Below are positions 2,421 to 22,516 of a stretch of 22,668 nt of DNA, piece by piece (the stretch's first letter is position 1; the number at the start of each line of letters is the position of its first letter). Position numbers and translations under genes: made by a program. This DNA is from a virus. Where the stretch lies: positions 1-22,668 of IMG/VR virus record IMGVR_UViG_3300031227_000467; one strand, written 5' to 3'. A model generated the notes under the pieces. That model did not search any database. It saw only the letters and a program-made list of their open reading frames with translations, and was not told where the DNA came from.

Positions 2421-2423
2421 GTG

Positions 2424-9500: not shown

Positions 9501-10109
9501 GCTCTCGTCTCCTCCTTCTAATGGGCCGGGGGCTTGCCCCGTGCCAGGTTTTGCGCCGGCTTCCGTGCCCGCGCCAATCATGCTCCGATCGTTCAGTGCT
9601 TCGAGAGACGTCATGAACGGCGTATTCGTCAGCGCCACGCTGTGCACCTGCATCAGCACCGCCTCGCCCGTCACCGGGTCGGCGGCGTTGAACCTCAGCA
9701 CGGGGCTCAGGTAGCGATACTGGCGCGATGTAATCATCAGCCGCGCCTCCTCGCTCCACGGCTGCACGCGCCCCCACAGCTCATCCTCGCCCGCGCGCAG
9801 CTCCATCTCCTTGATCCAGCCCGCAGCCGGCGCGCGAGGGGCCATCCCCGTAGACGCCAGCACGCTCTGGTGATGCCAGTCCACCGCGATGTCAGTCCCG
9901 TGGCCCCGGTAGTTCCGGTCGAACGCGTCCTTCGCGGCCACCAGGTGCGCCGGCGTAATCATCTCCGGACCGGCCGGATGACCGCGCCACTCGCCCAGAC
10001 GCGCGATCATGACCCACGGCGGTGCGTCCTCGGGGATCTCCTGGTTCAGCGTCAGCTTGTTTGCCGCGAGCTCGTCGCCAGCAACCGTTGAATTCAGTTT
10101 GACAACCAT
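8883..10109 (-). CDS. Mu protease I-like prohead protease (gp32)
   Basis: This 408-residue protein (ATG 10109 after GGGAGG) has the Mu-like prophage I architecture. The N-terminal protease domain covers about residues 1-180, with WVMIARLGEWRGHP, DAFDRNYRGHGTDIAVDWHH, AAGWIKEMELRAGEDELWGR and the QYRYLSPVLRF motif followed by VHSVALTNTPF. A low-complexity linker (TEAGAKPGTGQAPGPLEGG) then leads to a helical scaffold-like C-terminal half. The protease matures the capsid by removing scaffold. A strong internal ribosome site before Met at 9500 suggests that the second half is also made alone. A GGGGC/GCCCC palindrome (9529-9540) occupies the linker. Confidence 0.92.
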   Translation of the reverse strand: MVVKLNSTVAGDELAANKLTLNQEIPEDAPPWVMIARLGEWRGHPAGPEMITPAHLVAAKDAFDRNYRGHGTDIAVDWHHQSVLASTGMAPRAPAAGWIKEMELRAGEDELWGRVQPWSEEARLMITSRQYRYLSPVLRFNAADPVTGEAVLMQVHSVALTNTPFMTSLEALNDRSMIGAGTEAGAKPGTGQAPGPLEGGDESMDWINALAESLGKQPEEIASCLGLTLSEDGKAMAEALVANAARVTELEAQVAGQPIVNDAIAALLGIEKGAEEKAVKAKIMGLQLHAGTSAVRTKLGLADGADDGAVLNAIGELQTQRRASEAEALTDKAITDGKIAPAHRDALLAMATNDLAATEALVNSLPSQTDAPAHGNKPGVGGPRALTDVEAALCAQMNLTPEEFVAAG

Positions 10110-10144
10110 TCAAATCCTCCCTGTCCTGAGCCCATCAAAGAGCT

Positions 10145-12286
10145 TCAAAGCAACTCCGCCACGTGCGCCAGGCTGCTGAGTAGCGCCAGGTCGCCCCGGC
10201 CTTCGTCCGTCGTGGGCGCCCCGCCTTGGCTCGAGAGGTAGAACGCGTCGCCTGGGTGGAAGAGGAAGCCCGACGGCGCATCTAACGGCGCCGGGTCAGG
10301 CTGGCTCAGGGCCGCATCGAGCCCCTCCGCCCCCACCTCGTCCGCGGACATGCTCACGACCTCACACTGGCAGCCATGATGGATCGGCGGCCAGTAGGTC
10401 GCGAAAAACCCCCCGTCGAGCGGCGCGACGTTCCCGCACAAAGGCGCGCAGATGTCGCACGGCGTGTGGCAGAGCCACTGGCCGTAGGGCCGCACGTCCC
10501 GGTCCTGCTGGACCCGTATGTATTGGCCCGCGTTCTGTGCCGTCCAACGGTTGTTCCGGTGCACGAGCCGCGCCTGCCACGTCGGCATCTGCCCCGCGCC
10601 CGCCTCGGCCGACTCCGGCACGGAAAGACCCGCATTCTCCATCCGCTCCAGGAACTGGTTCTCCGTCTCGCCGGCCTCCAACACCTGCGTCAATTCGCTC
10701 GCCACCCGCGCCGTCTGTCCCTCGTCCAGTCCCGTCACCCACCAGGCCCGCTGCTTTCCGGCCGGGCTCAAGGCCTTCCAGGCATCCGGCGTCGCAATCC
10801 GCTTCTCGCCGAGGAACGACAGCGCCAGGCGGTCCAATATCCTCCACGGCGTCGCCTCCGCCTGGTGCAGCCTCAGGGCAAGCGCCTGCGGTGTGCACCG
10901 CCACAGCCTCGCCTCCTCCTGGAACGCCACGTCATGTATCAGCTCTCGTGCAGTTTGCTGTTCCCCTCGCCCTTCCGTTCCCGCCCTGGCGGGCAAGCTT
11001 CGTGCCCCCGCCTCGGCGGGTAAACTTCGTGGTGAGATCTCGTTGCTGAACATCCCCGGGCCCCTCGCCGGCGGCTTGAGCACCGGCTCGTCTCCCTCCG
11101 GCTCCGGGATGTTGAACTTCTCCCGCACCCAGGAGATCGGCACGGGCATCCCCGCCTCCGACAGCACCTTGATCGTCGTCGCGAGCTGCGGCAGATCCTC
11201 GGGCTCCGCCAGGGCGGTTTGCCAGACAGGACACGGCGCGTTCGGGCCCTTGTTCAGCCGCACGATCGGGGCGATCAACTGCTGCGTCAGCGTCTCATCC
11301 AGGGCCCGCGCGTCCGTCTCCGTCAGATCCCCTCGCACCTGGTTGTGCACCTGACCCAGCGCATACGACCCGCCACCTTCACCGCCGCTCGTCAGGAGCT
11401 GGCCCAAGACTGCCTTGGTCATCTCCTTCTCGGCGAACTCCAGAATCGACTGAAAGACCTGCCCCTCACCCGTCACACCCACGCTCGGGAACTCTATCTT
11501 GTTCCCCTCCCTGAGGAGGATGCTCATGTCCATGCCCATTGACGCCAGGGCGCTCTTGAACGCCTTCGCCTCATCGGAGTCCCACGGGATACCGTCCCGC
11601 AAATAGCCTGCCCTCAGCGGCATGCCGTAGACCTCTACGAACCCCAGCCAATCCTTGACGCCATACTGCCGCATCACGAACGGCCGCACGCAGCTCTTCA
11701 AGAGCGACCAGTTCGGCAAGAACCCGCTCCGCGCCCGCGCGCTGTGCACGATGAAGTTCAACGGATTCAGCGGGATCTGCTCGTCATACTTCTCGCCCTT
11801 GAGGAACAGCGTGTAACCATCGTCTCCCAGCGTGAACCATCGCTGCGGCCGCCAGGTCAAGGTCGTCGGACGCCACTCGCTCGCGCTCGTCTCCCAGCCC
11901 ACCTCGAGCACGGCGAATCCCTTCGGCACAGCGTCCAGCAGGTCGAAGATCGCGTTGCGCAGCCCCGTGATCCCATCCATCATGTCCCGCGCATACTCGG
12001 CGGCCGCCTCCGCCTCGCTGCTCTCGTCCGCCGCCAGGATCTCGTGGCCCAGGCTCGCGACCGCGTTCTTGCGCGTCCGCAGGTGGCCGTCCAGCTCACC
12101 GTCCCGCTGCTCCATCTGCTCAAACAGCTCGCACTGCGCGGCGATGTCTCCCGTCTCCGCCTGCAGCAGCCATGCGCGGATCTGCGACGGCGCCAAGTTG
12201 ATCCCCGTCAGCTCGCTCTCGATCCGCCGCGTCCCGGACGGTATCGGCTGTGCGATCGGTCCCTTATCTGGCTTGCTCTTGGCCAT
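10145..12286 (-). CDS. Portal protein (Mu gp29, DUF935) fused to MuF head-morphogenesis domain
   Basis: This 713-residue protein carries two modules usually encoded by separate genes. Residues 1 to about 410 are a DUF935 portal (LTPSQIRAWLL-like helix, LFEQMEQRDGELDGHLRTRK, GFAVLEVGWE, WRPQRWFTLGDDG, KDWLGFVEVYGMPLR, QVHNQVRGDLTETDA). Residues from about 440 to the end are a Mu F / SPP1 gp7-type minor head domain. This shows the family signature CDICAPLCGNVAPLDGGFF followed by YWPPIHHGCQCEVVSM near residues 610-645. The joint (about residues 418-436) is a duplicated RSLPAxAG peptide encoded by a 27-bp tandem palindromic repeat. The start, ATG 12286, lies four bases past the terminase stop. 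The portal forms the DNA-entry ring; MuF proteins assist head assembly or DNA ejection. Confidence 0.93.
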   Translation of the reverse strand: MAKSKPDKGPIAQPIPSGTRRIESELTGINLAPSQIRAWLLQAETGDIAAQCELFEQMEQRDGELDGHLRTRKNAVASLGHEILAADESSEAEAAAEYARDMMDGITGLRNAIFDLLDAVPKGFAVLEVGWETSASEWRPTTLTWRPQRWFTLGDDGYTLFLKGEKYDEQIPLNPLNFIVHSARARSGFLPNWSLLKSCVRPFVMRQYGVKDWLGFVEVYGMPLRAGYLRDGIPWDSDEAKAFKSALASMGMDMSILLREGNKIEFPSVGVTGEGQVFQSILEFAEKEMTKAVLGQLLTSGGEGGGSYALGQVHNQVRGDLTETDARALDETLTQQLIAPIVRLNKGPNAPCPVWQTALAEPEDLPQLATTIKVLSEAGMPVPISWVREKFNIPEPEGDEPVLKPPARGPGMFSNEISPRSLPAEAGARSLPARAGTEGRGEQQTARELIHDVAFQEEARLWRCTPQALALRLHQAEATPWRILDRLALSFLGEKRIATPDAWKALSPAGKQRAWWVTGLDEGQTARVASELTQVLEAGETENQFLERMENAGLSVPESAEAGAGQMPTWQARLVHRNNRWTAQNAGQYIRVQQDRDVRPYGQWLCHTPCDICAPLCGNVAPLDGGFFATYWPPIHHGCQCEVVSMSADEVGAEGLDAALSQPDPAPLDAPSGFLFHPGDAFYLSSQGGAPTTDEGRGDLALLSSLAHVAELL
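10980..11033. repeat. Tandem 27-bp palindromic repeat inside the portal-MuF gene
   Basis: Two copies begin at 10980 and 11007. Each has a CCCGCC-NN-GGCGGG palindrome followed by an AARCTTCGTG-type tail. The unit of 27 bp is nine codons, so the reading frame is kept and the peptide RSLPAxAG is doubled. The repeat sits at the joint between the two domains. Confidence 0.8.
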
Positions 12287-12290
12287 AGGT

Positions 12291-13844
12291 CTACACGCAG
12301 GCGAAGTCAGTCCGCCTCTCGAGGCTCATGTATTCCAGCTTCCCCGCCTGGGGGTTGAAGCTGTTCGGCAACATCTCGTCACATCCCGCCAGCGCGTCCG
12401 GTCCGTCCACGTATCCGTCCGGGTAGCTCGTGAGCTGCTCCTGCAGCTCCCGCACCCCCGCGTTCGGGTTCGAGGGAAACAGCCACCGGCCGTCCTCCAT
12501 CTGCGGACCCAGCGTCTGGATCCGCACGTCCTTGTTCTCCGAGTGGTTCACGTAGCGCACCGGTAGATACGCGCCGTGCGTCCGCATCTCCAGGATCGGC
12601 TTGATCAGCGCGTAGCCGCCGTTCTCCTCGACCCCAATCAGATAGGGGTTGAACCGCGCATTGAACTCCACCAGGCGGTCGACCATGTCCAACGCCGTCC
12701 CGCGCGCGATCCACGCGTCGAGCACGAAACGCCGCCCCGTCTTCTTGTGCGCACCGACCGCAATCAGCGCCCTCGGACACCCGGTCGGCGCCTCACTGAT
12801 CGCAGGGTCGAGGAACATCACGACGAGCAGGCTCGAAAGGTCGAGGTCCTCCTCCTTGTAGCTCCTCAGCCACGCCGCCTGGAACGGCTTGTCGGGATCC
12901 TCGGCGATCAACGCGAAGTTCCGGTTCCAATTCCGCAGCCCGATCTGCGCACGCGTCCGCTCCAGCGCGCCGTCTGGGAACCGCTCGGGCCAGACACTGT
13001 GTCCGTCCTCAAGTGCCGGCTGCCGGAAGAGCCGGCCCAGCGCGCGCCCGCCCACGGGTTCCTTCGCGGCCAGCTCCTTCGCCCCCTCCATCATGCAGCC
13101 CGGACCGAACATCGTCCCGAGCACTGTGAACGCGTAGCGCTCCGGCTCCAGCGCGGGCAGCACCTCCTCCATCATCCAGTCCCAGAGCTGCTTCTCGCGC
13201 CGCGGGTTGCGCGCGAGCTCCGCATCCTCAAGGTCGTCGCCCACAAACTCCAGCGGCCGGTGCTCCCCGAACCGCCGACCGCGCGGGCTCATCCCGATGC
13301 CGAACGCCTCCATCTTCGCCGCGCGCAGCGCCCACTGGCCCTTCTCGTTTCGCACCTTCGGCAGGGTCACGACCCACTCGTTCTCTTCCCCCTCCGTCGT
13401 CAGCGCGCCATAGTCGCACTTGATGCGCGGGTTCCCCTCGAGCTCCAGCCGCACGTAGTCCATGTTCTGGGCCGCGAGCCGCTGCACGCGCGCGCCATAC
13501 AGCGCATACGGCAGCCGGCGAGCCAGGACCTCCCGGAGTGGGCGCGCGAGCGCCAGCAATACGCTCTTGCCCGCGCCCCTGAACGCCGCCACGAACGTCG
13601 GCATCGCGGGCTCGCCGGCCGCCTCTACCATCCGCTTGTGAAAGCGGGCGAACGGGCGGTCGAAGTAGTGTGGCAGGTAGGTGCGACACCAATCCGTCTC
13701 TGCAGCCGGATCAACGAATGGCAGCGCCTTCCGTCCCGCCACGGCGGGATCCGACATGTCCTCGAACGGCGGCGCCTCACGCTGCTGCCGCTCGTGGATC
13801 CGCTGCCTTCTTACCTCATGCTCTCTGGACCACTTGTCCGTCAC
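12291..13844 (-). CDS. Terminase large subunit (Mu gp28-like)
   Basis: This 517-residue DNA-packaging motor has a GTG start at 13844 after CGGAG. The ATPase domain has Walker A RGAGKS at residues 89-94, preceded by TFVAAF, and Walker B FVGDDLED around residues 200-206. The RNase-H-like nuclease domain has LDPA (D346), GVEENGG (E406/E407) and a late Asp in VDGPDALAG (about D483). Length is normal for the family. A perfect 16-bp palindrome at 13734-13749 encodes SDPAVAGR at residues 31-38, in the poorly conserved N-terminal region before the ATPase core, and looks like an inserted repeat element. Confidence 0.94.
   Translation of the reverse strand: MTDKWSREHEVRRQRIHERQQREAPPFEDMSDPAVAGRKALPFVDPAAETDWCRTYLPHYFDRPFARFHKRMVEAAGEPAMPTFVAAFRGAGKSVLLALARPLREVLARRLPYALYGARVQRLAAQNMDYVRLELEGNPRIKCDYGALTTEGEENEWVVTLPKVRNEKGQWALRAAKMEAFGIGMSPRGRRFGEHRPLEFVGDDLEDAELARNPRREKQLWDWMMEEVLPALEPERYAFTVLGTMFGPGCMMEGAKELAAKEPVGGRALGRLFRQPALEDGHSVWPERFPDGALERTRAQIGLRNWNRNFALIAEDPDKPFQAAWLRSYKEEDLDLSSLLVVMFLDPAISEAPTGCPRALIAVGAHKKTGRRFVLDAWIARGTALDMVDRLVEFNARFNPYLIGVEENGGYALIKPILEMRTHGAYLPVRYVNHSENKDVRIQTLGPQMEDGRWLFPSNPNAGVRELQEQLTSYPDGYVDGPDALAGCDEMLPNSFNPQAGKLEYMSLERRTDFACV
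13734..13749. repeat. Palindrome within terminase N-terminus
   Basis: TCCCGCC-AC-GGCGGGA is a perfect 7-bp-arm palindrome encoded in frame in the terminase. Its core matches the CCCGCC/GGCGGG palindromes in the portal gene. Confidence 0.65.
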
Positions 13845-13858
13845 GCCGTCGCTCCGTT

Positions 13859-13893
13859 TTCCCTCTCCCCACGGGAGAGGGCAGGGTGAGGGA
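13859..13893. repeat. CCCTCTCCC-type palindromic repeat between two late genes
   Basis: The 49-base gap between the small helical protein gene and terminase holds CCCTCTCCC-CAC-GGGAGAGGG followed by CAGGGTGAGGG. I remember this motif as a widespread interspersed repeat in many bacterial genomes. It could form an mRNA hairpin upstream of terminase. Confidence 0.65.
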
Positions 13894-14133
13894 CTACATC
13901 AGGATGTGTCTGACACGCGTCGAGATCTCCGCGAGCAGCTTGTAGCGCTCCACCGCACTCGCGAAGTCGTCCGCCGCCGCCCTGATCTGGTCCGGGTCGA
14001 TCTCGCCGAGCGGCGTAATCCCGCTCGCCAGCCTCACCAGGCTCTCCTGCGCGTGCGTTGCGGCCGCCTCAGCCGCCTCCCGGTCAGTTCTGACGCCAAC
14101 CGCAAACTTCTCCAGCGTCTCTCTATCTGCCAT
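13894..14133 (-). CDS. Small helical protein upstream of terminase
   Basis: This 79-residue protein is almost all helix (ETLEKFAVGVRTDREAAEAAATHAQESLV and AADDFASAVERYKLLAEISTRV). I prefer ATG 14133 over the in-frame ATG 14139 because GGAGG ends seven bases before 14133 but only one base before 14139. The start overlaps the end of the membrane protein gene. I do not recognise the family; small ORFs of this size are usual just before gp27/gp28 in Mu-like phages. Confidence 0.7.
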   Translation of the reverse strand: MADRETLEKFAVGVRTDREAAEAAATHAQESLVRLASGITPLGEIDPDQIRAAADDFASAVERYKLLAEISTRVRHILM

Positions 14134-14422
14134 CGCCATGCCTCCGGTTGCACTCTTCCTTCGTCACCAGCCGCGGCATCCAGTCCCGCAGGTTGTCTTT
14201 GATCTCGCGCACATCTTCGATCAACGCCTCGAACTTCGCGGCCATAACCGGCACCTGGTCCACGGCAGGGTTGCCCCGCTGCAGCCGCGCCTCGTGCGCA
14301 TCGAGCCGATCGTTGACTCTCTGCTGCCAGGCGCCGATCTTGAACGCCACGAGCCAGCCCCCGACGACCCCGCCAAGCAACGCGCTCAGGCCCGAGATGA
14401 CGATCTGAAGCCATGCGCTCAC
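14123..14422 (-). CDS. Single-pass membrane protein with coiled coil (DUF2730-like position)
   Basis: This 99-residue protein starts at GTG 14422, overlapping the TGA of the preceding gene. One N-terminal membrane helix (LQIVISGLSALLGGVVGGWLVAF, about residues 5-27) is followed by charged helical sequence (WQQRVNDRLDAHEARLQ, AKFEALIEDVREIKDNL). This layout matches small Mu gp25-like (DUF2730) proteins and also holin- or spanin-like accessory proteins. No lysis enzyme lies nearby, so the gp25-like reading is preferred. Confidence 0.78.
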   Translation of the reverse strand: MSAWLQIVISGLSALLGGVVGGWLVAFKIGAWQQRVNDRLDAHEARLQRGNPAVDQVPVMAAKFEALIEDVREIKDNLRDWMPRLVTKEECNRRHGDGR

Positions 14423-14871
14423 CGTGTGCCCTCCTTGAGATCCGCGATGAACTCGTTCACGACCCGCCGCATGACCGCGAGGTCATCCGCGCCGAGCCGA
14501 GTCTCGAACCACTCCGAGAAACGGTCCATCGCTACCATGAGCTGCAGCGAGTCGCCGAACAGCGTGATGGTCTTGTCGAGGCTGCCGAGGAGTTTCGTCA
14601 GGGAGTCCGCCCAGGCGGGAGTCGTCATGCTTTCGTCGTGGGTGAGGCGGCGAAGACGTTTGATGAGCGCGCCGATCACGTCGCGCAGATCGGCCAGGTC
14701 CCCTGCCGGCGGCTCGCGGTCCCAGGATCGCCCCGCGCGCTCGTCCGCCGACTTCCATCGGGAGATCGTCGAGACGGACACCCCCAGCTCAGCGGCGATC
14801 TCCTCGAGAGACAGCCCGGCCGCATATCGCGACCTGGCCCTCGGCTTGAGGTCCTGCTTCGACGCGGGCAC
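14419..14871 (-). CDS. Terminase small subunit-like HTH protein
   Basis: This 150-residue protein has a GTG start at 14871 with GGAGGGG four bases before it. The N-terminus has a clear helix-turn-helix (AAGLSLEEIAAELGVSVSTISRWK, about residues 17-40). A helical C-terminal region follows (ALIKRLRRLTHDES, WADSLTKLLGSLDKTITLFG, RVVNEFIADLKEG). It is the first gene of the late operon and precedes the large terminase by two small genes. DNA-binding small terminase (gp27- or DUF1804-like) is the best guess. A late-operon regulator is the main alternative. Confidence 0.72.
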   Translation of the reverse strand: MPASKQDLKPRARSRYAAGLSLEEIAAELGVSVSTISRWKSADERAGRSWDREPPAGDLADLRDVIGALIKRLRRLTHDESMTTPAWADSLTKLLGSLDKTITLFGDSLQLMVAMDRFSEWFETRLGADDLAVMRRVVNEFIADLKEGTR

Positions 14872-14908
14872 TTGTCCCCTCCAGGCAATTGGCCCGTCTA
14901 CACGGTTC

Positions 14909-14929
14909 GGACCGGCTCACCGGCGGTCC
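14909..14929 (-). promoter_or_regulatory. Inverted repeat in late leader (possible operator)
   Basis: GGACCG and CGGTCC arms (6 bp, 9-base spacer) lie about 5-25 bases downstream of the predicted late transcription start. It could be an operator or a leader hairpin. Confidence 0.4.
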
Positions 14930-14940
14930 TGTATCAGATA

Positions 14941-14969
14941 ATCTTATACGCTGGCAGATGCGATGTCAA
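14941..14969 (-). promoter_or_regulatory. Late operon promoter (sigma70-type)
   Basis: On the minus strand TTGACA (14969-14964), a 17-base spacer and TAAGAT (14946-14941) form a near-consensus promoter about 70 bases before the first late gene. The -35 region lies in a 16-bp element (14961-14976) that matches the early promoter at 14 of 16 positions. Such a strong promoter for late genes is unlike Mu, where late promoters need the activator C. Confidence 0.75.
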
Positions 14970-14981
14970 GTCCCAATGCAC

Positions 14982-15015
14982 AAAAAAACCGGGGGTGGCG
15001 ACCCGCCAGGCCCGG
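14982..15015 (-). terminator. Rho-independent terminator of the repressor operon
   Basis: On the minus strand, CCGGG pairs with CCCGG and an inner TGGCG pairs with CGCCA around a GGT loop, followed by seven T. It lies 36 bases past the zinc-ribbon membrane protein gene and just before the late promoter, so it insulates lysogenic from late transcription. Confidence 0.88.
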
Positions 15016-15050
15016 CTCAACACTTCGGGATGGACGCCGTTACCTCACCA

Positions 15051-15344
15051 TTACCCGTGATACCACCAAGCTGCTGTCTTGCAGCCAATGATGATAGCCA
15101 CGCCAAGAAGGCAGAACACGACGCACCCTTCAGCAGCCCCCGAAGACAAGGATAGCAGGCCGACGATGATGAACCCGCCCCCAACGAGCTGCCCCGTCTT
15201 CCACTCCTTCGACGTCTTCTCGATGGTCTGCACTCGCCCCCCCACATAGTCCGGCTCCGCACTCATCGGGCAAGCGCAACCAGGGCATGCCTCTGCCTTG
15301 TCGGAAATCTCTCGTCCGCACTCAGGACACTTGATTAGCGCCAT
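15051..15344 (-). CDS. Zinc-ribbon membrane protein co-transcribed with repressor
   Basis: This 97-residue protein begins with a zinc ribbon (KCPECGREISDKAEACPGCACP: CxxC-x11-CxxC at residues 5-22). A charged linker follows, then two hydrophobic segments (LVGGGFIIVGLLSLSSG and CVVFCLLGVAIIIGC). It is 18 bases downstream of the repressor stop, and a strong terminator follows it, so it should be expressed in the lysogen. That suggests lysogenic conversion or superinfection exclusion, but no family function is known to me. Confidence 0.78.
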   Translation of the reverse strand: MALIKCPECGREISDKAEACPGCACPMSAEPDYVGGRVQTIEKTSKEWKTGQLVGGGFIIVGLLSLSSGAAEGCVVFCLLGVAIIIGCKTAAWWYHG

Positions 15345-15362
15345 CCGGCCCCCCTTATGTTA

Positions 15363-15809
15363 TTACTGCCCCTTCTGCCGCTCTACTTCGCGACTCCAGT
15401 CTATCCGACACCCGCATCCGTGGCAATGGCCTGCGTACTCCTTTAGCTCCGCATAGCAGTTAGCACAGTGCCACGCCGTGCGCGAAATCCCCCCTACCAC
15501 TGCGGAGGACGGCCCCGGATGAGCTACCTCATAGGTGGCAGCCTCCTCGGTCACCTTCATCGCTCCGAGGCCGCTCAATAGCCACGATGCTGGTATGCCC
15601 AATCGCTCTTCGGCCCGGTGCGCGACATTGCGCGTGAAGGGTGATTTGCCGCTGATCAGTGCAGAGAGGTAGCCCCGGTGGTATCCCATCTTGTTAGCGG
15701 CATCGCCTTTGGACATTTTCAGACGCGCGATTCCCTGCTCCAACCGCTTGCCTGGCGTAGCCGTTTCAGATGTCTCAGATTTGGGGCTTGACATTGGCCC
15801 GCTCGTCAT
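15363..15809 (-). CDS. Phage repressor, XRE-type HTH with C-terminal zinc ribbon
   Basis: This 148-residue protein starts at ATG 15809; an in-frame ATG at 15794 is the alternative. A longer open frame to 16115 overlaps the divergent Ner gene and its promoter and is rejected. Residues 20-75 form an XRE-like HTH (LEQGIARLKMSKGDAANKMGYHRGYLSALISGKSPF). The C-terminus has a zinc ribbon with C115-x2-C118 and C129-x2-C132 plus C134. It is divergent from the Ner-like and A genes, as the Mu c repressor is, and has a matching promoter that faces the early promoter. Mu c has no zinc ribbon, so this is a different repressor type; the ribbon may mediate oligomerisation or DNA contact. Confidence 0.82.
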   Translation of the reverse strand: MTSGPMSSPKSETSETATPGKRLEQGIARLKMSKGDAANKMGYHRGYLSALISGKSPFTRNVAHRAEERLGIPASWLLSGLGAMKVTEEAATYEVAHPGPSSAVVGGISRTAWHCANCYAELKEYAGHCHGCGCRIDWSREVERQKGQ

Positions 15810-15816
15810 GTAAGAT
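15788..15816 (+). promoter_or_regulatory. Early promoter
   Basis: TTGACA (15788-15793), 17-base spacer, TAAGAT (15811-15816). Predicted start is near 15823, at the edge of an 18-bp palindrome. It drives the Ner-A-B operon. The repressor start codon lies within its spacer on the other strand. Confidence 0.8.
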
Positions 15817-15823
15817 CTATCCG

Positions 15824-15841
15824 TGGTGGCGGACGCCACCA
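15824..15841. promoter_or_regulatory. 18-bp palindromic operator candidate
   Basis: TGGTGGCG-GA-CGCCACCA has perfect 8-bp arms. It occupies the gap between the two facing promoters' start points, so a bound dimer would block both. The repressor or the Ner-like protein is the likely ligand. Confidence 0.7.
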
Positions 15842-15852
15842 GAAGCCTCAAT

Positions 15853-15881
15853 AGGATACAGGAGCGGCGTATGAGTGTCAA
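15853..15881 (-). promoter_or_regulatory. Repressor promoter, facing the early promoter
   Basis: On the minus strand TTGACA (15881-15876), a 17-base spacer and TATCCT (15858-15853) point toward the repressor. Its -35 box lies inside the first codons of the Ner-like gene. The predicted start near 15846 converges on the early start. Confidence 0.68.
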
Positions 15882-16107
15882 TACCAAAACCCGACGCGCA
15901 AAAGACCCGGCCAGCGAGGCCCCGCGTATCCGGGCCTTCTGCTCCCGCAATGGTATCTCCCGAAGCGCCCTGGCCGAATCCGTCGGCACCGGGCGCCGAT
16001 ACATCTCGGACGCCCTCCACGCGGACACCAACGGGAAGGCCGTCAGTGCGGCCCAGCTCGAACGTATCTGGGCCGCAGTGCTCACGCTCGCGAGGCAATC
16101 GGCATGA
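15871..16107 (+). CDS. Ner-like small DNA-binding protein
   Basis: This 78-residue basic protein starts at ATG 15871 after AGGAG. The centre is a helix-turn-helix-like stretch (RIRAFCSRNGISRSALAESVGTGRRYISDALH, about residues 20-50). As first gene of the early operon and next to the repressor, it matches the position and size of Mu Ner, which represses the early and repressor promoters. Its stop overlaps the transposase start (ATGA). Function rests on position and fold. Confidence 0.75.
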   Translation: MSVNTKTRRAKDPASEAPRIRAFCSRNGISRSALAESVGTGRRYISDALHADTNGKAVSAAQLERIWAAVLTLARQSA

Positions 16108-18146
16108 GCGAACACACGGACCTGATGACCTTCGAGGACGCAGCACAGGAGCTCGGCATCACACTCCGCTCTGTCCGCCGACTCGTCCGCCTCGGACGCC
16201 TCCCCTCAGAGCCCATCGGCAGACACCCCAACGGCAAGGTCGCGCACGGGATACCCCGTAGCACCCTGAGCTTGTCGAAGGACCTGGTCTGTGTGGCACA
16301 GCCGCCCTCGGCTGTGAGGAACGCCCCCATACCCGACCGTGTCCCGCTCACACACGACGGACTCCCCGACGTCGCCGCCATGCGCGCCCTCGGACTCGAC
16401 TCACACGCGGACGAGTGGGACCGCCGAATGCGCATCGTCGCGGAATACTCCGACCTCCGGATCCGCGCCCCCCACGGAGGCAAGCGCGCCGCCGCACAGC
16501 TCGTCGCCCAGAAATACAGCGAAAGCCTCTCCACCATCTACCGCTACTGGAAGGACTGGCGCGAGGGCGGCCCGGCCGCACTGCTCCCGGCCTGGCAGAC
16601 ACAGGCCGGGCGGACCACCCTCCCGGCCGATCTCCAGTGCCAGGTGCGCGAGTTCTGGCTCAACTCACGGCGCGCATCCGTCGCCCAGGTCTACAAGTCC
16701 GTCGTTCTGCCCTACTATAAGGATATTAATACGCAACCCCCACACCGGAGCACGATCGCCCGATTTCTGCGCAAACACGTCCTCCCGCTCGAAAAGACCT
16801 TCTGGCGCGAGGGCCGGCGCGCATACCAGGCCCAGGCAGCCCCGAAGGTCGTCCGCGCACTCCCCACCGAACCTAACGATTGGTGGTGCGCGGACCACCG
16901 CCTCTGGGACGTCATGGTGGTCGTCCCTGATGGACGCGGCGCGGGGTGGGGCAGACACGATAAGCTCTCATGCCCGTGCGGCTCCGGACGCGAGCGGCGG
17001 CGCTGCTGCTCCGTCCGACGCCCCTGGCTGACCATGATCGTAGATATCGCGAGCGCCGCATTCGTCGGCTACCGGATCAGCCTGGTCCCCACGGCCGCCG
17101 GCGTCTGCCACGCAATCCGATCCGCAATCCTGGACTACGGCGTCCCCCGCCATTTCTACCGCGACAATGGCCGCGAGTTCACAGCCCGCCGACTCGGTGG
17201 CCGCGCCGACAGGCTACTCAAGCCCCGCAGGACCGACCTCGAGAGCCGGCAGCAGTGGCCCTGCGCTGTCCCCGCCGACGTCGAGCAAAGCGGCGTCTGG
17301 AGCGCCCTCGGCGTCGAGGTCGTCACGGCCCTCCCTTACCACCCCTGGTCCAAGCCGATCGAATCGATATTCCATGCGTTCTCCCAACAGTGGGAAAACC
17401 TCGTCCCCGGCTGGAGCGGGCGCGACGCGAAGCAGAAGCCGGAAGCCCTCGACTCGCAGATCCGCTCAGGCTCGCTCCTTCTACTCGATGAGTTCGCCCA
17501 GGTCTTCGCACAGGAGCTCGCCAAGTGGCACGCGGACCACGTCTGCGGCGAGCGCGCGCAGACCCCCGATGCCTTCCACGCGGATTACTTGCCTCGCGCC
17601 GTCGACCCGGCTACCCTGACCTTCCTGATCCAGGACGTCAGGGAGCGCGTCCACGTCGAGCAGTCCGGCATCTTCCTCCAGGCCGGGGGCACCGTCATGC
17701 GGTTCTGGACCGACGATCTCGCCTTGTATATTGGCTGCGTCGTCACCGTCCGATGGGACCCGGACGACCCCCGGTGCATCTGGGCCTACACGCCCGACAA
17801 GAAGGTCGTGGCGGTCCCGCCGGCAACCGACGCCGAGTGGGGCGCGTGGGGCGAGCCCAACGCCGCATCCAAACGCGCAGAGCGCATCCAGCGCAATTTC
17901 CTCAAGGCCCGCGCCTCCGAGATGCGCGGCGCGACCCCCATCGAGCGCCTCGACCCCGTCGGCGCCGTGGCGCTTATCCGAGACCGCCAGGCGGGCATCG
18001 CAGAATCCGCCGTCTCCCGCAGCGCCGCCGATGAGCGCCTGCGCGAACTCGCCGACGAACAGCAACGCGCCCTCGAAGACGCGAAGTCCAAGAAGCCTGA
18101 GAAGTATACCACCGTCTACGACGACGAGCTCTCGAAGATCGCCTGA
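16104..18146 (+). CDS. A: MuA-type DDE transposase
   Basis: This 680-residue transposase cuts phage ends and joins them to target DNA. Order of parts: an N-terminal winged HTH (LMTFEDAAQELGITLRSVRRLVRLGRLP, residues 7-34); repeat-derived peptides STLSLSKD (53-60) and VAQPPSAV (64-71); an HTH near residues 126-152 (GGKRAAAQLVAQKYSESLSTIYRYW); and the RNase-H catalytic core. Probable DDE residues are D264 (WWCADHRLWD), D354 (HFYRDNGREF) and E420 (WSKPIESIFHAF). Between D264 and D354 lies a SEC-C-like zinc motif, CPCGSGRERRRCC (290-302). A Mu-type C-terminal barrel follows at about 510-600, then a charged tail ending VYDDELSKIA. The last parts would contact the B protein. Confidence 0.95.
   Translation: MSEHTDLMTFEDAAQELGITLRSVRRLVRLGRLPSEPIGRHPNGKVAHGIPRSTLSLSKDLVCVAQPPSAVRNAPIPDRVPLTHDGLPDVAAMRALGLDSHADEWDRRMRIVAEYSDLRIRAPHGGKRAAAQLVAQKYSESLSTIYRYWKDWREGGPAALLPAWQTQAGRTTLPADLQCQVREFWLNSRRASVAQVYKSVVLPYYKDINTQPPHRSTIARFLRKHVLPLEKTFWREGRRAYQAQAAPKVVRALPTEPNDWWCADHRLWDVMVVVPDGRGAGWGRHDKLSCPCGSGRERRRCCSVRRPWLTMIVDIASAAFVGYRISLVPTAAGVCHAIRSAILDYGVPRHFYRDNGREFTARRLGGRADRLLKPRRTDLESRQQWPCAVPADVEQSGVWSALGVEVVTALPYHPWSKPIESIFHAFSQQWENLVPGWSGRDAKQKPEALDSQIRSGSLLLLDEFAQVFAQELAKWHADHVCGERAQTPDAFHADYLPRAVDPATLTFLIQDVRERVHVEQSGIFLQAGGTVMRFWTDDLALYIGCVVTVRWDPDDPRCIWAYTPDKKVVAVPPATDAEWGAWGEPNAASKRAERIQRNFLKARASEMRGATPIERLDPVGAVALIRDRQAGIAESAVSRSAADERLRELADEQQRALEDAKSKKPEKYTTVYDDELSKIA
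16264..16316. repeat. Two repeat elements inside the transposase gene
   Basis: CCCTGAGCTTGTCGAAGG (16264-16281) is followed by a perfect hairpin, CACAGCCG-CCCT-CGGCTGTG (16297-16316). Both stay in frame between the N-terminal HTH and the rest of A. I remember both motifs as recurring short repeats in environmental genomes; that is memory, not a search. Confidence 0.7.
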
Positions 18147-18163
18147 CCAGGTGGAGAGAGGGA

Positions 18164-19075
18164 ATGGCCCATAAGTGGACGGATGAGGAGCGAAAGACGG
18201 TCCGCGAATGGTCGGCCTTCGCCGACCTCCACGGCATGAGCCGCGGCGACCAGTGCCACTTCCTGCGGGTGAGCGGCGCGACCATCAGCCAGCTCTACAG
18301 CGAGACATATACCGGCCGCGTCGCCCGCATCACCGAGCAGATGCGGCGCCACCTCCGCCGCGAGCGCCTTCGTGCCCTCGCGCCCCAGCCGCCGCCGTTC
18401 GTGAAGACATCCGTCGTAGATGAGGTTGTCCGCGCCCTCGGCATCGCCCAGCAGGAGCGCGTCATCGTCCTCCTCCTCGGGCCAACAGGCGTCGGGAAGA
18501 CCGTCGGCATCCGCCGCTACTGCGATGCCGAGCCGGACACCATCCTCTTCACCGCCGGCATCGGCGTGAGCCCCTGGAGCGTTGGCCGCGAGATCGCGAC
18601 GCAGCTTGGCATGTCATCCCACATGAATGTCTACCAGCTGCGCCAGGCCGTCGCGAGTGACCTCCGCACCAGACCCCGCCTGGTCGTCGTCGATGAGATT
18701 GATTACGCGCACGAGCCCGTCGTCCAGTATCTCCGCATGATCCACGACGAGGGGGGCGTCGGCATGGTCTTCGCCGGAACGGCGGCATATCTCAGGCGTC
18801 TGCGGGGCTATCGCAGCGCAACGGTCCGCCAGGTCCTGGGGCGCATCAAGCACGCCGTCCACCTGCCCCCTTGCTCTGATGATGATCTATCCGCCATCCT
18901 TGCGCCGTATGACCTCGCCGAAGAGGCCCTCGAGGCCATCGTTGATGGCGCGCACGGCGAGGCCCGCCGCGCCGTCAACTGTATCGTCGCTGCGCAGCGG
19001 ATGAACGGGAAGCACGGCATTTCACCCGAGCTCGTGCACCGGGCGTACGAAACCCTCATGCCGTGGGAAGATTGA
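18164..19075 (+). CDS. B: MuB-type AAA+ ATPase, target-DNA selector
   Basis: This 303-residue protein, preceded by GGAGAGAGG, has an N-terminal HTH (SRGDQCHFLRVSGATISQLY, residues 26-45). The AAA+ core has Walker A GPTGVGKT at 106-113, Walker B LVVVDEID at 173-180 and a GTAAYL sensor segment near 205-210. In Mu, B forms ATP-dependent filaments on target DNA, activates A and gives target immunity. The gene lies 17 bases after A, as expected. Confidence 0.94.
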   Translation: MAHKWTDEERKTVREWSAFADLHGMSRGDQCHFLRVSGATISQLYSETYTGRVARITEQMRRHLRRERLRALAPQPPPFVKTSVVDEVVRALGIAQQERVIVLLLGPTGVGKTVGIRRYCDAEPDTILFTAGIGVSPWSVGREIATQLGMSSHMNVYQLRQAVASDLRTRPRLVVVDEIDYAHEPVVQYLRMIHDEGGVGMVFAGTAAYLRRLRGYRSATVRQVLGRIKHAVHLPPCSDDDLSAILAPYDLAEEALEAIVDGAHGEARRAVNCIVAAQRMNGKHGISPELVHRAYETLMPWED

Positions 19076-19110
19076 TTTGAGACGTTACCTGTCCAGGAGG
19101 AGAGAGAGGC

Positions 19111-19155
19111 TTGCCCGCCGTAGCCCCGCCCGTAGCGGGACGAGGGCGGCAGGCG
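19111..19155. repeat. GTAGC-containing palindromic repeat in 5' leader
   Basis: The 99-base gap after B contains GCCCGCCGTAGC, an imperfect second copy, GCCCGTAGC, and a CCCGC-CCGTA-GCGGG hairpin (19125-19139) ending in GGGCGGCAGGCGAAG. It sits about 20-60 bases before the next start codon and could influence its translation. The type resembles interspersed repeats I recall from candidate-phylum genomes. Confidence 0.55.
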
Positions 19156-19174
19156 AAGAAGGGAGCTGAGTGAG

Positions 19175-19831
19175 ATGGGTAAGGACAAGAAGGACGTGCC
19201 GGTGGAGTTGAGCGTGCGGGTGACGTTTGGCGAGCCCCTGCTGGGGACGGCGCCGCTGGACCCGGAGATATTCAAGGCATACGTTACGAAGGGAATCCTT
19301 TCCGAGGAGGAGGAGGTGGGGAGCTTGCCTGGTGTGGATGAGGATGAGAAGCCGGAGGCGGAGCGCAAGCCCAGCCAAGTTACGGGCTTCCACCGAGAGA
19401 ATGGGCATATCTTTCTCTATGACTACCAGGTGAAAGGGTTCTTCAAGGACGCGTGCGGGTCGTTGAAGCGGGCTGGATACACGATGAGCAATCCATTCAC
19501 GGCCTACAAGAAGAAGATCGACGGGCTGGTGTTCGTGGAGCCGCGGCGGATCCCGATCGCGTTACCGGATGGGTGCGACGTGGAGAGCATCGAGATCCTG
19601 AGCCGGCCGCTGAGGGCCAGCACACCGCAGGGGGACAGGGTTGCGATCGCGTCCTCCGAGGTAGCGCCGGCGGGCTCGACGATGGAGTTGCGGATTAGCT
19701 CGTTGAGTCGGGCAGCGCTGCCGGCGGAGCTGGTGCAGGAGTGGCTCGGCTATGGCGCGCTGCGCGGTTTTGGCGCGTGGCGCAATGCCGGCTACGGCCG
19801 GTTCACGTGGGAGGCTCTTTCGCAAAGCTAA
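19175..19831 (+). CDS. Early phage protein with a RAMP-like glycine-rich loop (function unknown)
   Basis: This 218-residue protein starts at ATG 19175 after GGGAG. The N-terminal strand (VELSVRVTFGEPLLGTAP) leads to an acidic insert (residues 43-62), then LYDYQVKGFFKDACGSLKRA (81-100), YKKKIDGLVFVEPRRIPI and PLRASTPQGDRVAIASSEV. It ends with GYGALRGFGAWRNAGYGRFTW (192-212). The segment GFGAWRNAGYG fits exactly the GhGxxxxxGhG consensus of RAMP-fold (Cas5/Cas6/Cas7) RNA-binding proteins, and it lies near the C-terminus as in Cas6. I believe homologues occur in Firmicutes phages but cannot check. No CRISPR array or other cas gene is visible. Codons end more often in G than in the A and B genes, which hints at separate ancestry. 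RNA binding is inference. Confidence 0.8.
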   Translation: MGKDKKDVPVELSVRVTFGEPLLGTAPLDPEIFKAYVTKGILSEEEEVGSLPGVDEDEKPEAERKPSQVTGFHRENGHIFLYDYQVKGFFKDACGSLKRAGYTMSNPFTAYKKKIDGLVFVEPRRIPIALPDGCDVESIEILSRPLRASTPQGDRVAIASSEVAPAGSTMELRISSLSRAALPAELVQEWLGYGALRGFGAWRNAGYGRFTWEALSQS

Positions 19832-20055
19832 GGCTGGGCGGCGCGAGGCACCGCCGTGCGAGGCAAAGGCAAGGCCTGGCATAGCGTAGCAAAGGCTGGG
19901 CGTCGCATGGCGGAGCCAGGCGCGGCGATGCGCGGCGAGGCAAAGCAAAGGCCTCGCACGGCGATGCATCGCAGAGCAAAGGCGGGGCAAGGCAAGGCGG
20001 TGCAAGGCAAAGGCGGGGCGGAGCAACGCCGTGCGAGGCAAAGGCAAGGCAAGGC
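19822..20055. repeat. GC-every-five-bases array (45 units)
   Basis: From 19822 to 20055 a GC dinucleotide recurs every five bases (GCNNN), with seven units stretched to six: six are GCAAAG and one is GCTAAG. The 45 units average 5.16 bases. The variable triplets are purine-rich on the plus strand (AAG, GAG, GGG, AAA). One 23-bp stretch is repeated exactly at 19853-19875 and 20028-20050. The array starts inside the last codons of the upstream gene, includes its stop, and ends 28 bases before the next ATG. It is neither a simple tandem repeat nor coding-like (period 5, not 3). Confidence 0.93.
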
Positions 20056-20083
20056 TTTTACAGGAGCTCAGAGGAGGAAGAAG

Positions 20084-20413
20084 ATGGCAGCCGAGATTGA
20101 CCAGGGTGGGATGCACTACTCGGAACCCGACGCGGTCGGGTGCCTGAGCGCCCTGGTGAGGCTCGGCGGGCGGGCGACGTCGAGGGAGATCCGCCGGTTC
20201 CATGACCGGGAGGCGATCCACACGAGCATCAGCAACCTCCGGGAGTATCTGCGGCGCCAGGGCTACGAGGGCGAGACGGTGAGGACGGTCTGGATGGAGT
20301 GGCGCGGGAGCGGGCGGAAGCGGCCAGTCTATCACCTGCGGCAAGACGTGCTACAGGGGTGCGCGCCGAAGCAGTCCACGCTATTCGAGACGGCGCAACG
20401 GTTCACGGATTAG
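20084..20413 (+). CDS. Small winged-helix-like protein
   Basis: This 109-residue protein starts at ATG 20084 after GAGGAGGAAG. The frame is open upstream through the GC array to 19856, but that part is array-encoded and the strong ribosome site argues for 20084. The core (AVGCLSALVRLGGRATSREIRRF, TSISNLREYLRRQGYEGETV, GSGRKRPVYHLR) has the helix-helix-wing order of a winged-helix DNA-binding domain: two helices, a recognition-like helix, then a basic wing ending in YHL. No family is recognised. It probably binds nucleic acid in early development. Confidence 0.78.
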   Translation: MAAEIDQGGMHYSEPDAVGCLSALVRLGGRATSREIRRFHDREAIHTSISNLREYLRRQGYEGETVRTVWMEWRGSGRKRPVYHLRQDVLQGCAPKQSTLFETAQRFTD

Positions 20414-20441
20414 CCACAGAGACACAGAGATCACAGAGAAC
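20411..20441. repeat. CACAGAGA tandem repeat
   Basis: CACAGAGA occurs three times in a row with 8-9-base spacing (CCACAGAGACACAGAGATC...) right after a stop codon and just before a small ORF. I recall this motif as a common intergenic repeat in many bacterial genomes. Confidence 0.6.
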
Positions 20442-20444
20442 GGC

Positions 20445-20645
20445 ATGAACGGGATGGACGAGGTGGAGGTGGAGATGGCGAGGCGGGCGCAGCGGTCGGC
20501 GGAGGAGAGGGACAAGATTCTACGCGCGATCAGGGCGTGGCGTGCGGAACTGAGCGTCCGAAAGACGCGTGACGATTCCGAGAACGAGAACGGAAGGAAG
20601 GGCGATGGAAAAGGTAAAACACGACTGTGGCCAGAAAGGCGTTGA
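20445..20645 (+). CDS. Small charged helical ORF (uncertain)
   Basis: This possible 66-residue protein (or 63 from ATG 20454) is highly charged and helical at first (VEVEMARRAQRSAEERDKILRAIRAWRAEL), then becomes low complexity (DDSENENGRKGDGKGK). It overlaps the Gam gene by 41 bases. The upstream ribosome site is weak, and the overlapped end is shaped by the Gam ribosome site. It may be real, since small ORFs between B and gam are usual in Mu-like phages, but evidence is thin. Confidence 0.45.
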   Translation: MNGMDEVEVEMARRAQRSAEERDKILRAIRAWRAELSVRKTRDDSENENGRKGDGKGKTRLWPERR

Positions 20646-21171
20646 GGCGCGGGAAGAGACGAACGTTGTTGCGCTGGGATGGATCAAGAGCGCACTCCTG
20701 GCGATAGGGCGCCGACAGTTGGAACTCGATGCCCTGGAGAACCAGATGGAGGCGGAGATCCAGGCGGTGAAGGCTCGCCACTCGAGGCGGATGGGGACGC
20801 TCCAGGAGACGATCAAACGCGGCGCGGAGCTTCTGGAGAAGGACGTTCGGGGCGCGCGTAAAAGCCTGTTCAAACGGGTCGCAAAGAGCATTAGATGCCT
20901 GTTCGGGCGGGTGGGGTTCCGGGCCGTCCCAGGCTCCGTCTCCCTGGCGAAAGGAACAAGCGAGGACGAGTCGGTGCGGCTGCTCCAGGCACGCGGGCTG
21001 GACCACATGGTGCGGACGCGCCTCGAGGTGAACAAGGCCGCCGTGCAGAGCGGCCTGGCGGCCGGCGAGGTGGACGATAAGACGCTCCACCGCTGCGGTC
21101 TCACCATCAAGAGCCCCGGCGAGCAGTTCTTCTACAAGCTCGACCGGGCCGAGATCGAGAAGCAGAACTGA
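20605..21171 (+). CDS. gam: Mu Gam-like host-nuclease inhibitor
   Basis: I choose ATG 20605 (MEKVKHD, 188 residues) because GGAAGGAAGG precedes it; an upstream in-frame ATG at 20569 has no such site. The protein has a long coiled coil (ALLAIGRRQLELDALENQMEAEIQAVKARH, then TLQETIKRGAELLEKDV). After that comes the Gam end domain: GRVGFRAVPGSV, SVRLLQARGLDHMVRTRLEVNKAAVQ and the C-terminal FFYKLDRAEI. Mu Gam is a Ku-like dimer that coats double-stranded ends against exonucleases. The stop overlaps the gemA ATG (TGATG). Confidence 0.92.
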   Translation: MEKVKHDCGQKGVEAREETNVVALGWIKSALLAIGRRQLELDALENQMEAEIQAVKARHSRRMGTLQETIKRGAELLEKDVRGARKSLFKRVAKSIRCLFGRVGFRAVPGSVSLAKGTSEDESVRLLQARGLDHMVRTRLEVNKAAVQSGLAAGEVDDKTLHRCGLTIKSPGEQFFYKLDRAEIEKQN

Positions 21172-21698
21172 TGGCATACACGACCAACCATCTGCGGCGG
21201 GCATACTTCGCGCTCTGCAAGAGCTTGGGGGTGAGCGAGGATGACCGGCACGCGTTCAACCTCAGCCGCGTCGGGAAGGAGTCGACGAAGGACTGGGGTC
21301 GGCGGGACTGGAAGGACGCGGTCGCGGAGCTCCAGCGGATGGCGGGGCAGCGCTCGAAGCCGGGCCGGCCACGGCTCCGCGCTGACAAGCCGTCCGAGGT
21401 GTCGGTCGAGGACGGGATGTTCGCGACGGCCAGGCAGTGCGAGATGATCGAGGATCTCTGCGACCAGGTCGAGTGGCGGGCCGGGCGCGAGGAGGGGCCG
21501 AGGGCCTACGTGCTCAAGCACTTCCTCCAGGACAAGAAGTTTGAGCTCGTGAAGAAGCGGATCGGTAAGGAAGGCTGGACGGCCCTGCCGAGGGACGTGG
21601 CGAGCGCGCTGATCCAGGGGCTCAGGACGATGAAGAACTTCTACCCAGTGTGCGAGGAGTCTCCATCCTTCGCGGAAGCTTCGGGGGACAAGCAATGA
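21171..21698 (+). CDS. gemA: GemA-like (Mu gp16) early regulatory protein
   Basis: This 175-residue protein has the gp16/GemA hallmarks: the N-terminal LRRAYFALCKSLGVSEDDRHAF, the ATARQCEMIEDLCDQVEW motif near residues 84-101, FLQDKKFELVKKRIGKEGW, and LPRDVASALIQGLRTMK toward the end. In Mu, GemA alters host gene expression and DNA topology. The last twelve residues (SPSFAEASGDKQ) are encoded by a repeat-like element at 21662-21690 and look like an added tail. The TGA overlaps the next ATG (ATGA). Confidence 0.92.
   Translation: MAYTTNHLRRAYFALCKSLGVSEDDRHAFNLSRVGKESTKDWGRRDWKDAVAELQRMAGQRSKPGRPRLRADKPSEVSVEDGMFATARQCEMIEDLCDQVEWRAGREEGPRAYVLKHFLQDKKFELVKKRIGKEGWTALPRDVASALIQGLRTMKNFYPVCEESPSFAEASGDKQ
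21662..21690. repeat. Repeat element forming the GemA C-terminus
   Basis: TCCTTCGCGGAAGCTTCGGG followed by GGACAAG reads PSFAEASGDK. I recall closely related 'FAEAS/FAKAT-DK' peptides recurring in environmental proteomes as products of interspersed repeats. A GAAGCTTC palindrome lies in its centre. Confidence 0.55.
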
Positions 21699-22273
21699 GC
21701 AACGATGTCGAGACGCTGATGACGGCGAGGCGTGGCCGCCTCCGGGCGGTCCCGGCCAGGGACTACCGGGAGGATGACAATCCCACCTACAACGCGCAGT
21801 ACTCTGTGCGGCGCGGGGCAATCGCGGACGGCCGGTCCGTCCTCCTGACCCGCGCTCGGCTCGTGAGGGACGGGATCCGGAGCGTGTCCGAGGTCTGCAG
21901 CGTGACCGAGCTGACGGCGATCGCCATCATCTCGAGAGAGATGCATGTGGGCGCCGCGAGGATCGCGCGATGGGCCGAGCGCGGGGTCCACAACGCCGCT
22001 ATCTGGGCCGCCTGGCAGAAGGTCGTCGACGCCCTCACGACGCCCGTATGCGCGAAGACATCAACAACACTACCTACTGTTCTCTCGCACTGGCGTAATC
22101 GCGTTGGCCTCAGCCTCAACGCTGCCAGCCGGCGATGTGGGGTCGCGTCCGGCACCTATTCCGCCTGGGAGAGAGGCGAGTCCATACCCCAACCCCACAA
22201 CATGGAGCGGCTCAGGAAGATGCTCGGTCCCATCCCCGACGACGACGCCGAGGACGAGGACGACTCCCTATAA
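21695..22273 (+). CDS. XRE-family regulator at the Mu mor position
   Basis: This 192-residue protein starts at ATG 21695, overlapping the GemA stop. An N-terminal helical region (LTRARLVRDGIRSVSEVCSVTELTAIAIISREM) may be a first HTH. The C-terminal part is an XRE-type HTH (VLSHWRNRVGLSLNAASRRCGVASGTYSAWERGESIPQP, about residues 129-168), followed by an acidic tail (DDDAEDEDDSL). In Mu the gene after gemA is mor, the middle activator. This protein is not a Mor relative by sequence but may fill that slot. Confidence 0.8.
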   Translation: MSNDVETLMTARRGRLRAVPARDYREDDNPTYNAQYSVRRGAIADGRSVLLTRARLVRDGIRSVSEVCSVTELTAIAIISREMHVGAARIARWAERGVHNAAIWAAWQKVVDALTTPVCAKTSTTLPTVLSHWRNRVGLSLNAASRRCGVASGTYSAWERGESIPQPHNMERLRKMLGPIPDDDAEDEDDSL

Positions 22274-22288
22274 CCTCGAGGTGACACT

Positions 22289-22516
22289 GTGGCATTCGAA
22301 CAATCCCCAATCGAGACCGTTACGCTGCCCCCGGGCGCCAGATTCTGCGCGACCCCTGACTGCGACCACATCGCGGACGTCGCCGTATTCCGCCGCGGCA
22401 ACAAGATCATCACCCTCGAGTGCATGCACTGCTACTGGACCGACCTTCAAACCGAGATTCCCGTCTCTGACCGCCCCCAGGCTGTGGCAGTTCAGGCCTC
22501 ACCCGACCCCGCATAG
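22289..22516 (+). CDS. Small zinc-finger-like protein
   Basis: This 75-residue protein has a GTG start at 22289 with GAGGTG six bases before. Its centre has Cys pairs (FCATPDCDHI ... LECMHCYW: C-x4-C and C-x2-C), a probable zinc-binding knuckle pair. It is the last gene seen in the early operon. No family is recognised. Confidence 0.68.
   Translation: MAFEQSPIETVTLPPGARFCATPDCDHIADVAVFRRGNKIITLECMHCYWTDLQTEIPVSDRPQAVAVQASPDPA

What the first reader, a model, noticed from the sequence alone, without database searches (positions are those of the whole stretch)
19175..19831. Early phage protein with exact GhGxxxxxGhG loop of RAMP RNA-binding proteins
GFGAWRNAGYG near the C-terminus fits the glycine loop of Cas5/Cas6/Cas7-type RAMPs, and the gene directly abuts the GC array. 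A phage RNA-binding protein next to its own binding array would be a new small system.
Basis: partly seen in the sequence, partly recalled or inferred. Interest (0 to 1): 0.75.

Follow-up and report, generated by a model that had tools for sequence, protein, structure and literature searches.

The report
VIPR-type RNA-guided system in Mu-like phage
The gene is a small phage relative of the CRISPR proteins that hold guide RNAs, and the odd GC-rich stretch beside it looks like its own guide-RNA array, so this is a further member of the recently described VIPR systems that phages use against one another.

Summary
GFGAWRNAGYG is residues 198-208 of a 218-aa protein. A 46-unit array with GC every 5 or 6 nt starts at its stop codon (19832-20057).

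The RAMP reading also holds. A blind profile search of the PDB puts Csm4 and type VII Cas7 on top. The AlphaFold2 model (pLDDT 84) matches Cas7/Csm3 over its full length (Z about 12).

Of 159 distinct relatives from phages and prophages, 152 carry a 5-nt array on the gene's strand, at a median of 4 nt from the gene.

The system is already described. A 2026 preprint (PMC13142463) reports VIPR: a phage RAMP (Vipr) plus tandem-pentanucleotide vrRNAs that find DNA by a gapped code. The SUSP1 Vipr aligns with this family along its whole length (hhalign E 3e-6).

Not in the preprint's main text are a looser unit (N-G-Y-N-N) and a regular punctuation. Every 4-8 repeats (peak 6) there is a 6-nt unit, often GC-AA-N, followed by GG. 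No accessory gene was conserved. I found no targets by the published 1-nt-skip rule, so how this clade reads DNA is untested.

The parts
19175..19831 (+). vipr: 218-aa single-domain RAMP protein (Cas7-like)
19766..19798 (+). codons of the glycine loop GFGAWRNAGYG (residues 198-208)
   Evidence: in the model it lies between helix 184-197 and strand 210-214
19832..20057 (+). vrRNA-type array: 44 tandem N-G-C-N-N units, non-coding, same strand as vipr
19862..19867 (+). 6-nt punctuation unit GGCAAA; the others (RGCAAA) at 19888-19893, 19944-19949, 19975-19980, 20006-20011, 20037-20042
   Evidence: unit parse; regularity
19852..19875 (+). 24-nt direct repeat within the array, copy 1 (copy 2 at 20027-20050)
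18164..19075 (+). context: MuB-like transposition ATPase upstream
   Evidence: PHROG 296 E=4e-46, AAA_22
16104..18146 (+). context: MuA-like transposase
   Evidence: PHROG 310 E=4e-71, Mu-transpos_C
20084..20413 (+). context: 109-aa ORF downstream of the array, weak winged-helix resemblance; not a recurrent partner of the family
20569..21171 (+). context: Mu Gam-like end protection
   Evidence: Phage_Mu_Gam E=2e-21
21171..21698 (+). context: GemA-like
   Evidence: GemA E=7e-7

Best explanation
This is a VIPR locus carried by a Mu-like phage. The protein is a Vipr, a single-domain Cas7-like RAMP. The GC array downstream is transcribed on the same strand into guide RNA. Copies of the Vipr line up on that RNA, and the fixed G-Y of each 5-nt unit sets their register. 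The variable bases of successive units jointly specify a double-stranded DNA target, most likely in competing phages or other mobile elements, whose transcription is blocked. Shown here: the homology, the fold, the linkage and co-orientation, and that the array frame is kept while its sequence turns over. Inferred from the published SUSP1 and P. fulva systems: transcription, binding of the RNA, DNA targeting, and use against rival elements.
For: Blind profile search of the PDB: Csm4 E=1e-4 and type VII Cas7 E=2e-4 are the top hits, with the glycine loop in the aligned region. AlphaFold2 model pLDDT 84, pTM 0.81. Foldseek best hits type VII Cas7 (E=3e-8), then Csm3; structural Z 12.4 and 11.8. 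Nearest viral structure is a 47%-identical 'Cas system-associated RAMP superfamily protein'. hhalign against the SUSP1-type Vipr alignment gives E=2.8e-6, probability 88, over 180 columns with the G-loops aligned; P0001 is identified as SUSP1 Vipr by PDB 36pp. Loci were fetched by protein only, and 152 of 159 distinct proteins have an array, median 4 nt from the gene, on the gene's strand in all loci with a clear array. Substitutions between related arrays: 1.2% at the fixed G against 7-9% at the variable positions. The published VIPR system has the same parts.
Against: No target found by the 1-nt-skip rule: no excess over unit shuffles in 7.7 Mb (both strands) of related phage DNA, none for one 10-unit block of the window in IMG/VR, none for two blocks of a relative in 378 family genomes. 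The unit here is N-G-Y-N-N, not GGY-NN. No conserved accessory gene. No structured RNA beyond unit composition, and no 3' tail was seen on reading the flanks. Members of A1 scanned singly give no Pfam match above cut-off.
Confidence: 0.87

Rival explanations
1. A RAMP-derived RNA-binding protein that coats its own array RNA for another purpose, such as autoregulation, RNA protection or a decoy for host CRISPR effectors, without guided DNA targeting.
For: All decoding attempts for this clade came up empty. No nuclease or other effector is conserved nearby. The arrays are long (median 94 units), much longer than the 9-16 repeats of a published vrRNA.
Against: The SUSP1 relative is reported to be an RNA-guided DNA-binding repressor. 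In the arrays the fixed G is kept while other positions change freely and related phages can have unalignable arrays, as expected of guides and not of a fixed ligand. The decoding searches covered few arrays and few suitable genomes.
Confidence: 0.1
2. The array is protein-coding, a low-complexity R/K/G/A/Q-rich N-terminal part of the downstream 109-aa ORF or an antisense protein.
For: In the window one forward frame is open through the array and continues into the ORF at 20084-20413.
Against: Only 9 of 156 long arrays have any forward frame open throughout. Arrays lie upstream or downstream of vipr and next to unrelated genes. 5- and 6-nt units break any reading frame.
Confidence: 0.02
3. A Cas6-like crRNA-processing nuclease or an orphan Cas7 captured from a host CRISPR locus.
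For: Weak hits to Cas6 and Csm4/Cas7 models in single members.
Against: Best fold matches are single-domain Cas7/Csm3, not Cas6. No CRISPR array or other cas gene in the window. The family is widespread in phages with its own kind of array.
Confidence: 0.03

Closest known systems
VIPR systems, especially the type II system of Escherichia phage SUSP1 (PMC13142463; Vipr ALH47069.1, PDB 36pp)
   Same: Phage-borne single-domain RAMP with G-loop, full-length profile match; tandem pentanucleotide array beside the gene on the same strand; fixed G-Y with variable bases between.
   Different: First base of the unit is not fixed here except after a 6-nt unit; 6-nt units recur every 4-8 repeats (few or none in SUSP1-type arrays); arrays run to hundreds of units; no vap gene and no structured tail found.
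Type VII CRISPR Cas7 (8yhd, 8z4j) and Csm3/Csm4 of type III-A
   Same: RAMP fold and glycine loop; these are the closest solved structures by sequence profile and by fold.
   Different: Only about 10-18% identity; no CRISPR repeats, no other cas genes in the window, and a different array.
A0A8S5R426, 'Cas system-associated RAMP superfamily protein' of Siphoviridae sp. ctcMb1
   Same: 47% identical by structure alignment, so a member of the same family, already labelled RAMP in UniProt.
   Different: Annotation carries no array or function.

Membership tests
VIPR (Vipr + vrRNA) | Phage-encoded small RAMP with a single RRM-type core and glycine loop | tested here: met
VIPR (Vipr + vrRNA) | Sequence homology to a characterised Vipr | tested here: met
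   hhalign with SUSP1-type alignment, E=2.8e-6, probability 88, full length
VIPR (Vipr + vrRNA) | Tandem 5-nt repeats of alternating GGY/NN, or a related consensus, flanking the gene | tested here: met
   N-G-Y-N-N arrays beside 152 of 159 distinct proteins; a related consensus, not GGY-NN itself
VIPR (Vipr + vrRNA) | Structured 3' tail on the vrRNA (type II) | tested here: inconclusive
   None seen on reading the array flanks; the arrays themselves fold no better than unit shuffles, mean z -0.01 in 30 arrays
VIPR (Vipr + vrRNA) | Accessory vap gene beside vipr (typical, varies by type) | tested here: inconclusive
   No recurrent protein partner within 5 kb; the window's 109-aa neighbour has no relative in the first 192 loci
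VIPR (Vipr + vrRNA) | DNA targets follow the 1-nt-skip rule | tested here: inconclusive
   No excess over shuffles in related phage DNA; no hits in IMG/VR or 378 genomes for three chosen blocks
VIPR (Vipr + vrRNA) | Array RNA is expressed and co-purifies with the protein | not testable with these tools
   needs RNA sequencing and pull-down
CRISPR Cas7/Csm3 (class 1 effector RAMP) | RAMP fold with G-loop | tested here: met
CRISPR Cas7/Csm3 (class 1 effector RAMP) | Part of a cas operon with a CRISPR array | tested here: not met
   no cas gene or CRISPR array seen in the window; array is 5-nt tandem, not repeat-spacer

The most novel reading that the evidence does not exclude
This large clade uses a different guide grammar from the characterised VIPRs: G-Y plus three variable bases per unit, cut by regular 6-nt marks into blocks of about 31 nt, in arrays of up to hundreds of units. 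It may therefore pair with DNA by another rule (for example reading three bases per unit, or staggered overlapping guides) and store many more guides.
Probability: 0.35. Interest if true: 0.75.

Novelty: new member of a known kind. Interest (0 to 1): 0.55.

Why it matters
It places an RNA-guided system proposed to pre-date CRISPR in a Mu-like transposable phage, and shows that its protein and array travel together in hundreds of phages and prophages of very different hosts. The regular 6-nt punctuation gives a concrete, testable feature for working out how long arrays are cut into guides and read. The main system is, however, already described.

Tried and rejected
Decoding: models reading two bases per unit with 0-3 skipped bases and three treatments of the 6-nt unit, plus contiguous-reading models, gave no excess over unit shuffles in the fetched phage DNA. 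A planned second set of reading frames was not completed because the script stopped on an error. The window's 10-unit block TG GT AT GG CA GC GA GC GA AA gave no match in IMG/VR or in 11 genomes. RNA structure: the window array folds well against dinucleotide shuffles (z -6.9) but only z -2.4 against unit shuffles, and 30 other arrays average z 0, so a structured RNA is not supported. Coding array: rejected. No Rfam family matches the window; no plasmid in PLSDB holds a relative. The supplement of the preprint could not be read here, so its figures S17/S18 (array consensus, staggered arrays) were not compared.

Full report
What is in the window. The window is a fragment of a Mu-like phage: MuA-like transposase at 16104-18146, MuB-like ATPase at 18164-19075, then the gene of the finding at 19175-19831, the GC array, a small ORF at 20084-20413, Gam at 20569-21171 and a GemA-like gene at 21171-21698. 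The protein has no match in Pfam or PHROGs. Its motif GFGAWRNAGYG is real, and 26 IMG/VR relatives at 35-48% identity were found at once. In an alignment of 20 (A1) the C-terminal block G(I/L)GQWRNSGKGRF is the most conserved part, with further blocks YDYQVKGFFKDAC and RPLRAQT-QGERVALA-SE--PAG.

Is it a RAMP? The profile of A1, searched blindly against all PDB sequences, puts Csm4 (E 1e-4) and type VII Cas7 (E 2e-4) first, both over the G-loop end. Single members give weak hits to cas5_csm4 and to Cas7_IIId, Cas6, Csm4 and Csm3 models. The AlphaFold2 model is confident (pLDDT 84.1, pTM 0.81). Foldseek lists only CRISPR RAMP proteins among the 50 best PDB hits, type VII Cas7 first (E 3e-8); VIA-align gives Z 12.4 for that Cas7 over 171 residues and 11.8 for Csm3. 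Among viral structures the best match is a 47%-identical protein already named a RAMP superfamily protein. The G-loop sits between the last helix and the last strand, which is its place in RAMPs (established knowledge of the family).

Does it travel with the array? Relatives were collected by protein sequence alone: 26 and 80 loci from IMG/VR (the latter out of 229 found), 75 from bacterial and archaeal genome contigs, and a later scan found 424 relatives in IMG/VR. In 180 loci (159 distinct proteins), 172 have an array within 3 kb: 57 upstream only, 99 downstream only, 16 on both sides. By distinct protein it is 152 of 159, with a median distance of 4 nt. Of the exceptions, L001 has an array just under the threshold, L017, L021, L077, L093 and L102 have the gene at or near a contig end, and only L088 and L126 lack a clear array. 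Scores of 40-480 compare with at most 18.4 in 25 shuffled loci, and the best array is on the gene's strand in every locus with a clear array. Second arrays more than 3 kb from the gene are rare (5 of 180 loci). The linkage is therefore specific.

What it is. A preprint from 2026 (PMC13142463) describes VIPR systems: a phage RAMP protein, Vipr, and vrRNAs of 9-16 YNNGG repeats that bind double-stranded DNA by a gapped code (two bases read, one skipped), repress transcription, and are aimed at competing phages and satellites. I took the SUSP1 genome, located its Vipr (28474-29061, minus strand) and confirmed it by PDB entry 36pp, 'SUSP1 Vipr protein'. A profile-profile comparison of A1 with SUSP1 and its relatives aligns 180 columns from end to end, E 2.8e-6, probability 88. 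With the matching fold and array this makes the window gene a vipr and the array its vrRNA source. That step is homology plus architecture; transcription, RNA binding and DNA targeting were not tested for this clade.

Anatomy of the array. In the window the parse gives 46 units at 19821-20057, the first two overlapping the end of the gene; G and C at positions 2 and 3 are invariant and positions 1, 4 and 5 vary. Across 225 distinct arrays (23,569 units, median 94 units, longest 426) the unit is N-G-Y-N-N, with A often in place of Y in AT-rich phages. This differs from the GGY-NN of the SUSP1 type, where position 1 is mostly G. A second level of order appears: about 15% of units have 6 nt, and these recur every 4-8 units with a peak at 6 (771 of 2806 intervals at exactly 6 against 188 expected from a random scatter). 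The 6-nt unit has AA at the variable positions in 41% of cases against 16% in 5-nt units, and the unit after it starts with G in 90% of cases against 28% elsewhere. So the array is built of blocks of roughly 31 nt: GGY-NN, several NGY-NN, then NGY-AAN. Between related arrays the fixed G changes in 1.2% of sites, the G after a 6-nt unit in 2.0%, the other positions in 7-9%, and phages with about 86% identical vipr DNA can have unalignable arrays (L009 and L150). The frame is conserved and the content is free, as guides require. The preprint mentions arrays with overlapping, staggered vrRNAs and related consensus motifs in figures that could not be read here, so this punctuation may or may not be recorded there.

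How it probably works. By analogy with SUSP1, copies of Vipr bind the array RNA in register with the G-Y dinucleotides, and the bases between them are shown to DNA. I tried to find targets. In 7.7 Mb (both strands) of related phage DNA no skip rule gave more matches than unit-shuffled arrays. One 10-unit block from the window has no exact match in IMG/VR, and two blocks of a relative have none in 378 genomes of its family. These tests covered few arrays, few hosts and no strain-level collections, so they say little against targeting, but the published reading rule is not confirmed for this clade. The regular 6-nt units and the free first position leave room for another rule.

Neighbours. No protein family recurs beside the gene in the way a vap gene would. 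What recurs are ordinary early and lysogeny genes of phages, such as a Cro/CI-type regulator, an SSB-like protein and an integrase-like protein (named here from the sequences shown), so this clade seems to be a bare Vipr plus array. Only two of the first 192 loci hold relatives of the window's MuA or MuB, so the Mu-like carrier is unusual.

Verdict. What may be new is the punctuated array grammar of this large clade and its Mu-like carrier.

Noticed in passing
L088 7211-10000 (contig WJMJ01000154, binned as Lokiarchaeota but with a T4-type Gp23 capsid gene): A vipr (8701-9438) lies between a TnpB/Cas12f-like nuclease (7211-8602; guided_TnpB E=2e-6, Cas12f E=1.5e-6) and a CRISPR-like mini-array (29-nt repeat GTGACGCCCACGTGCGCATGGGAGGATGG, four full copies, spacing 62, 62, 55). 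A Vipr and a Cas12-type system may share one phage locus.
   Followed up: partly
L045 3633-4517 and 12523-12846; L055 13936-14615; L159 6381-6691: Further long 5-nt arrays several kb from the vipr in the same contigs; no second gene with a RAMP-type glycine loop was found in these contigs.
   Followed up: partly
window 19852-19875 and 20027-20050, with 19952-19963: A 24-nt direct repeat at both ends of the array, and a 12-nt inner stretch complementary to part of it; the fold is somewhat better than unit shuffles (2 of 150 as low). Not general in other arrays.
   Followed up: partly
L044 and L046 (contig JAGCAN010000001.1, at 15-36 kb and 63-84 kb): The same vipr and the same array occur twice in one 86-kb contig, 48 kb apart.
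   Followed up: no
L126 3501-4181: A relative of the family without any detectable 5-nt array, in a 5.2-kb contig.
   Followed up: partly
window 1-15400 against 15800-22500: The structural genes of this Mu-like phage run on the minus strand and the early genes on the plus strand, with HTH-type ORFs near the switch.
   Followed up: no
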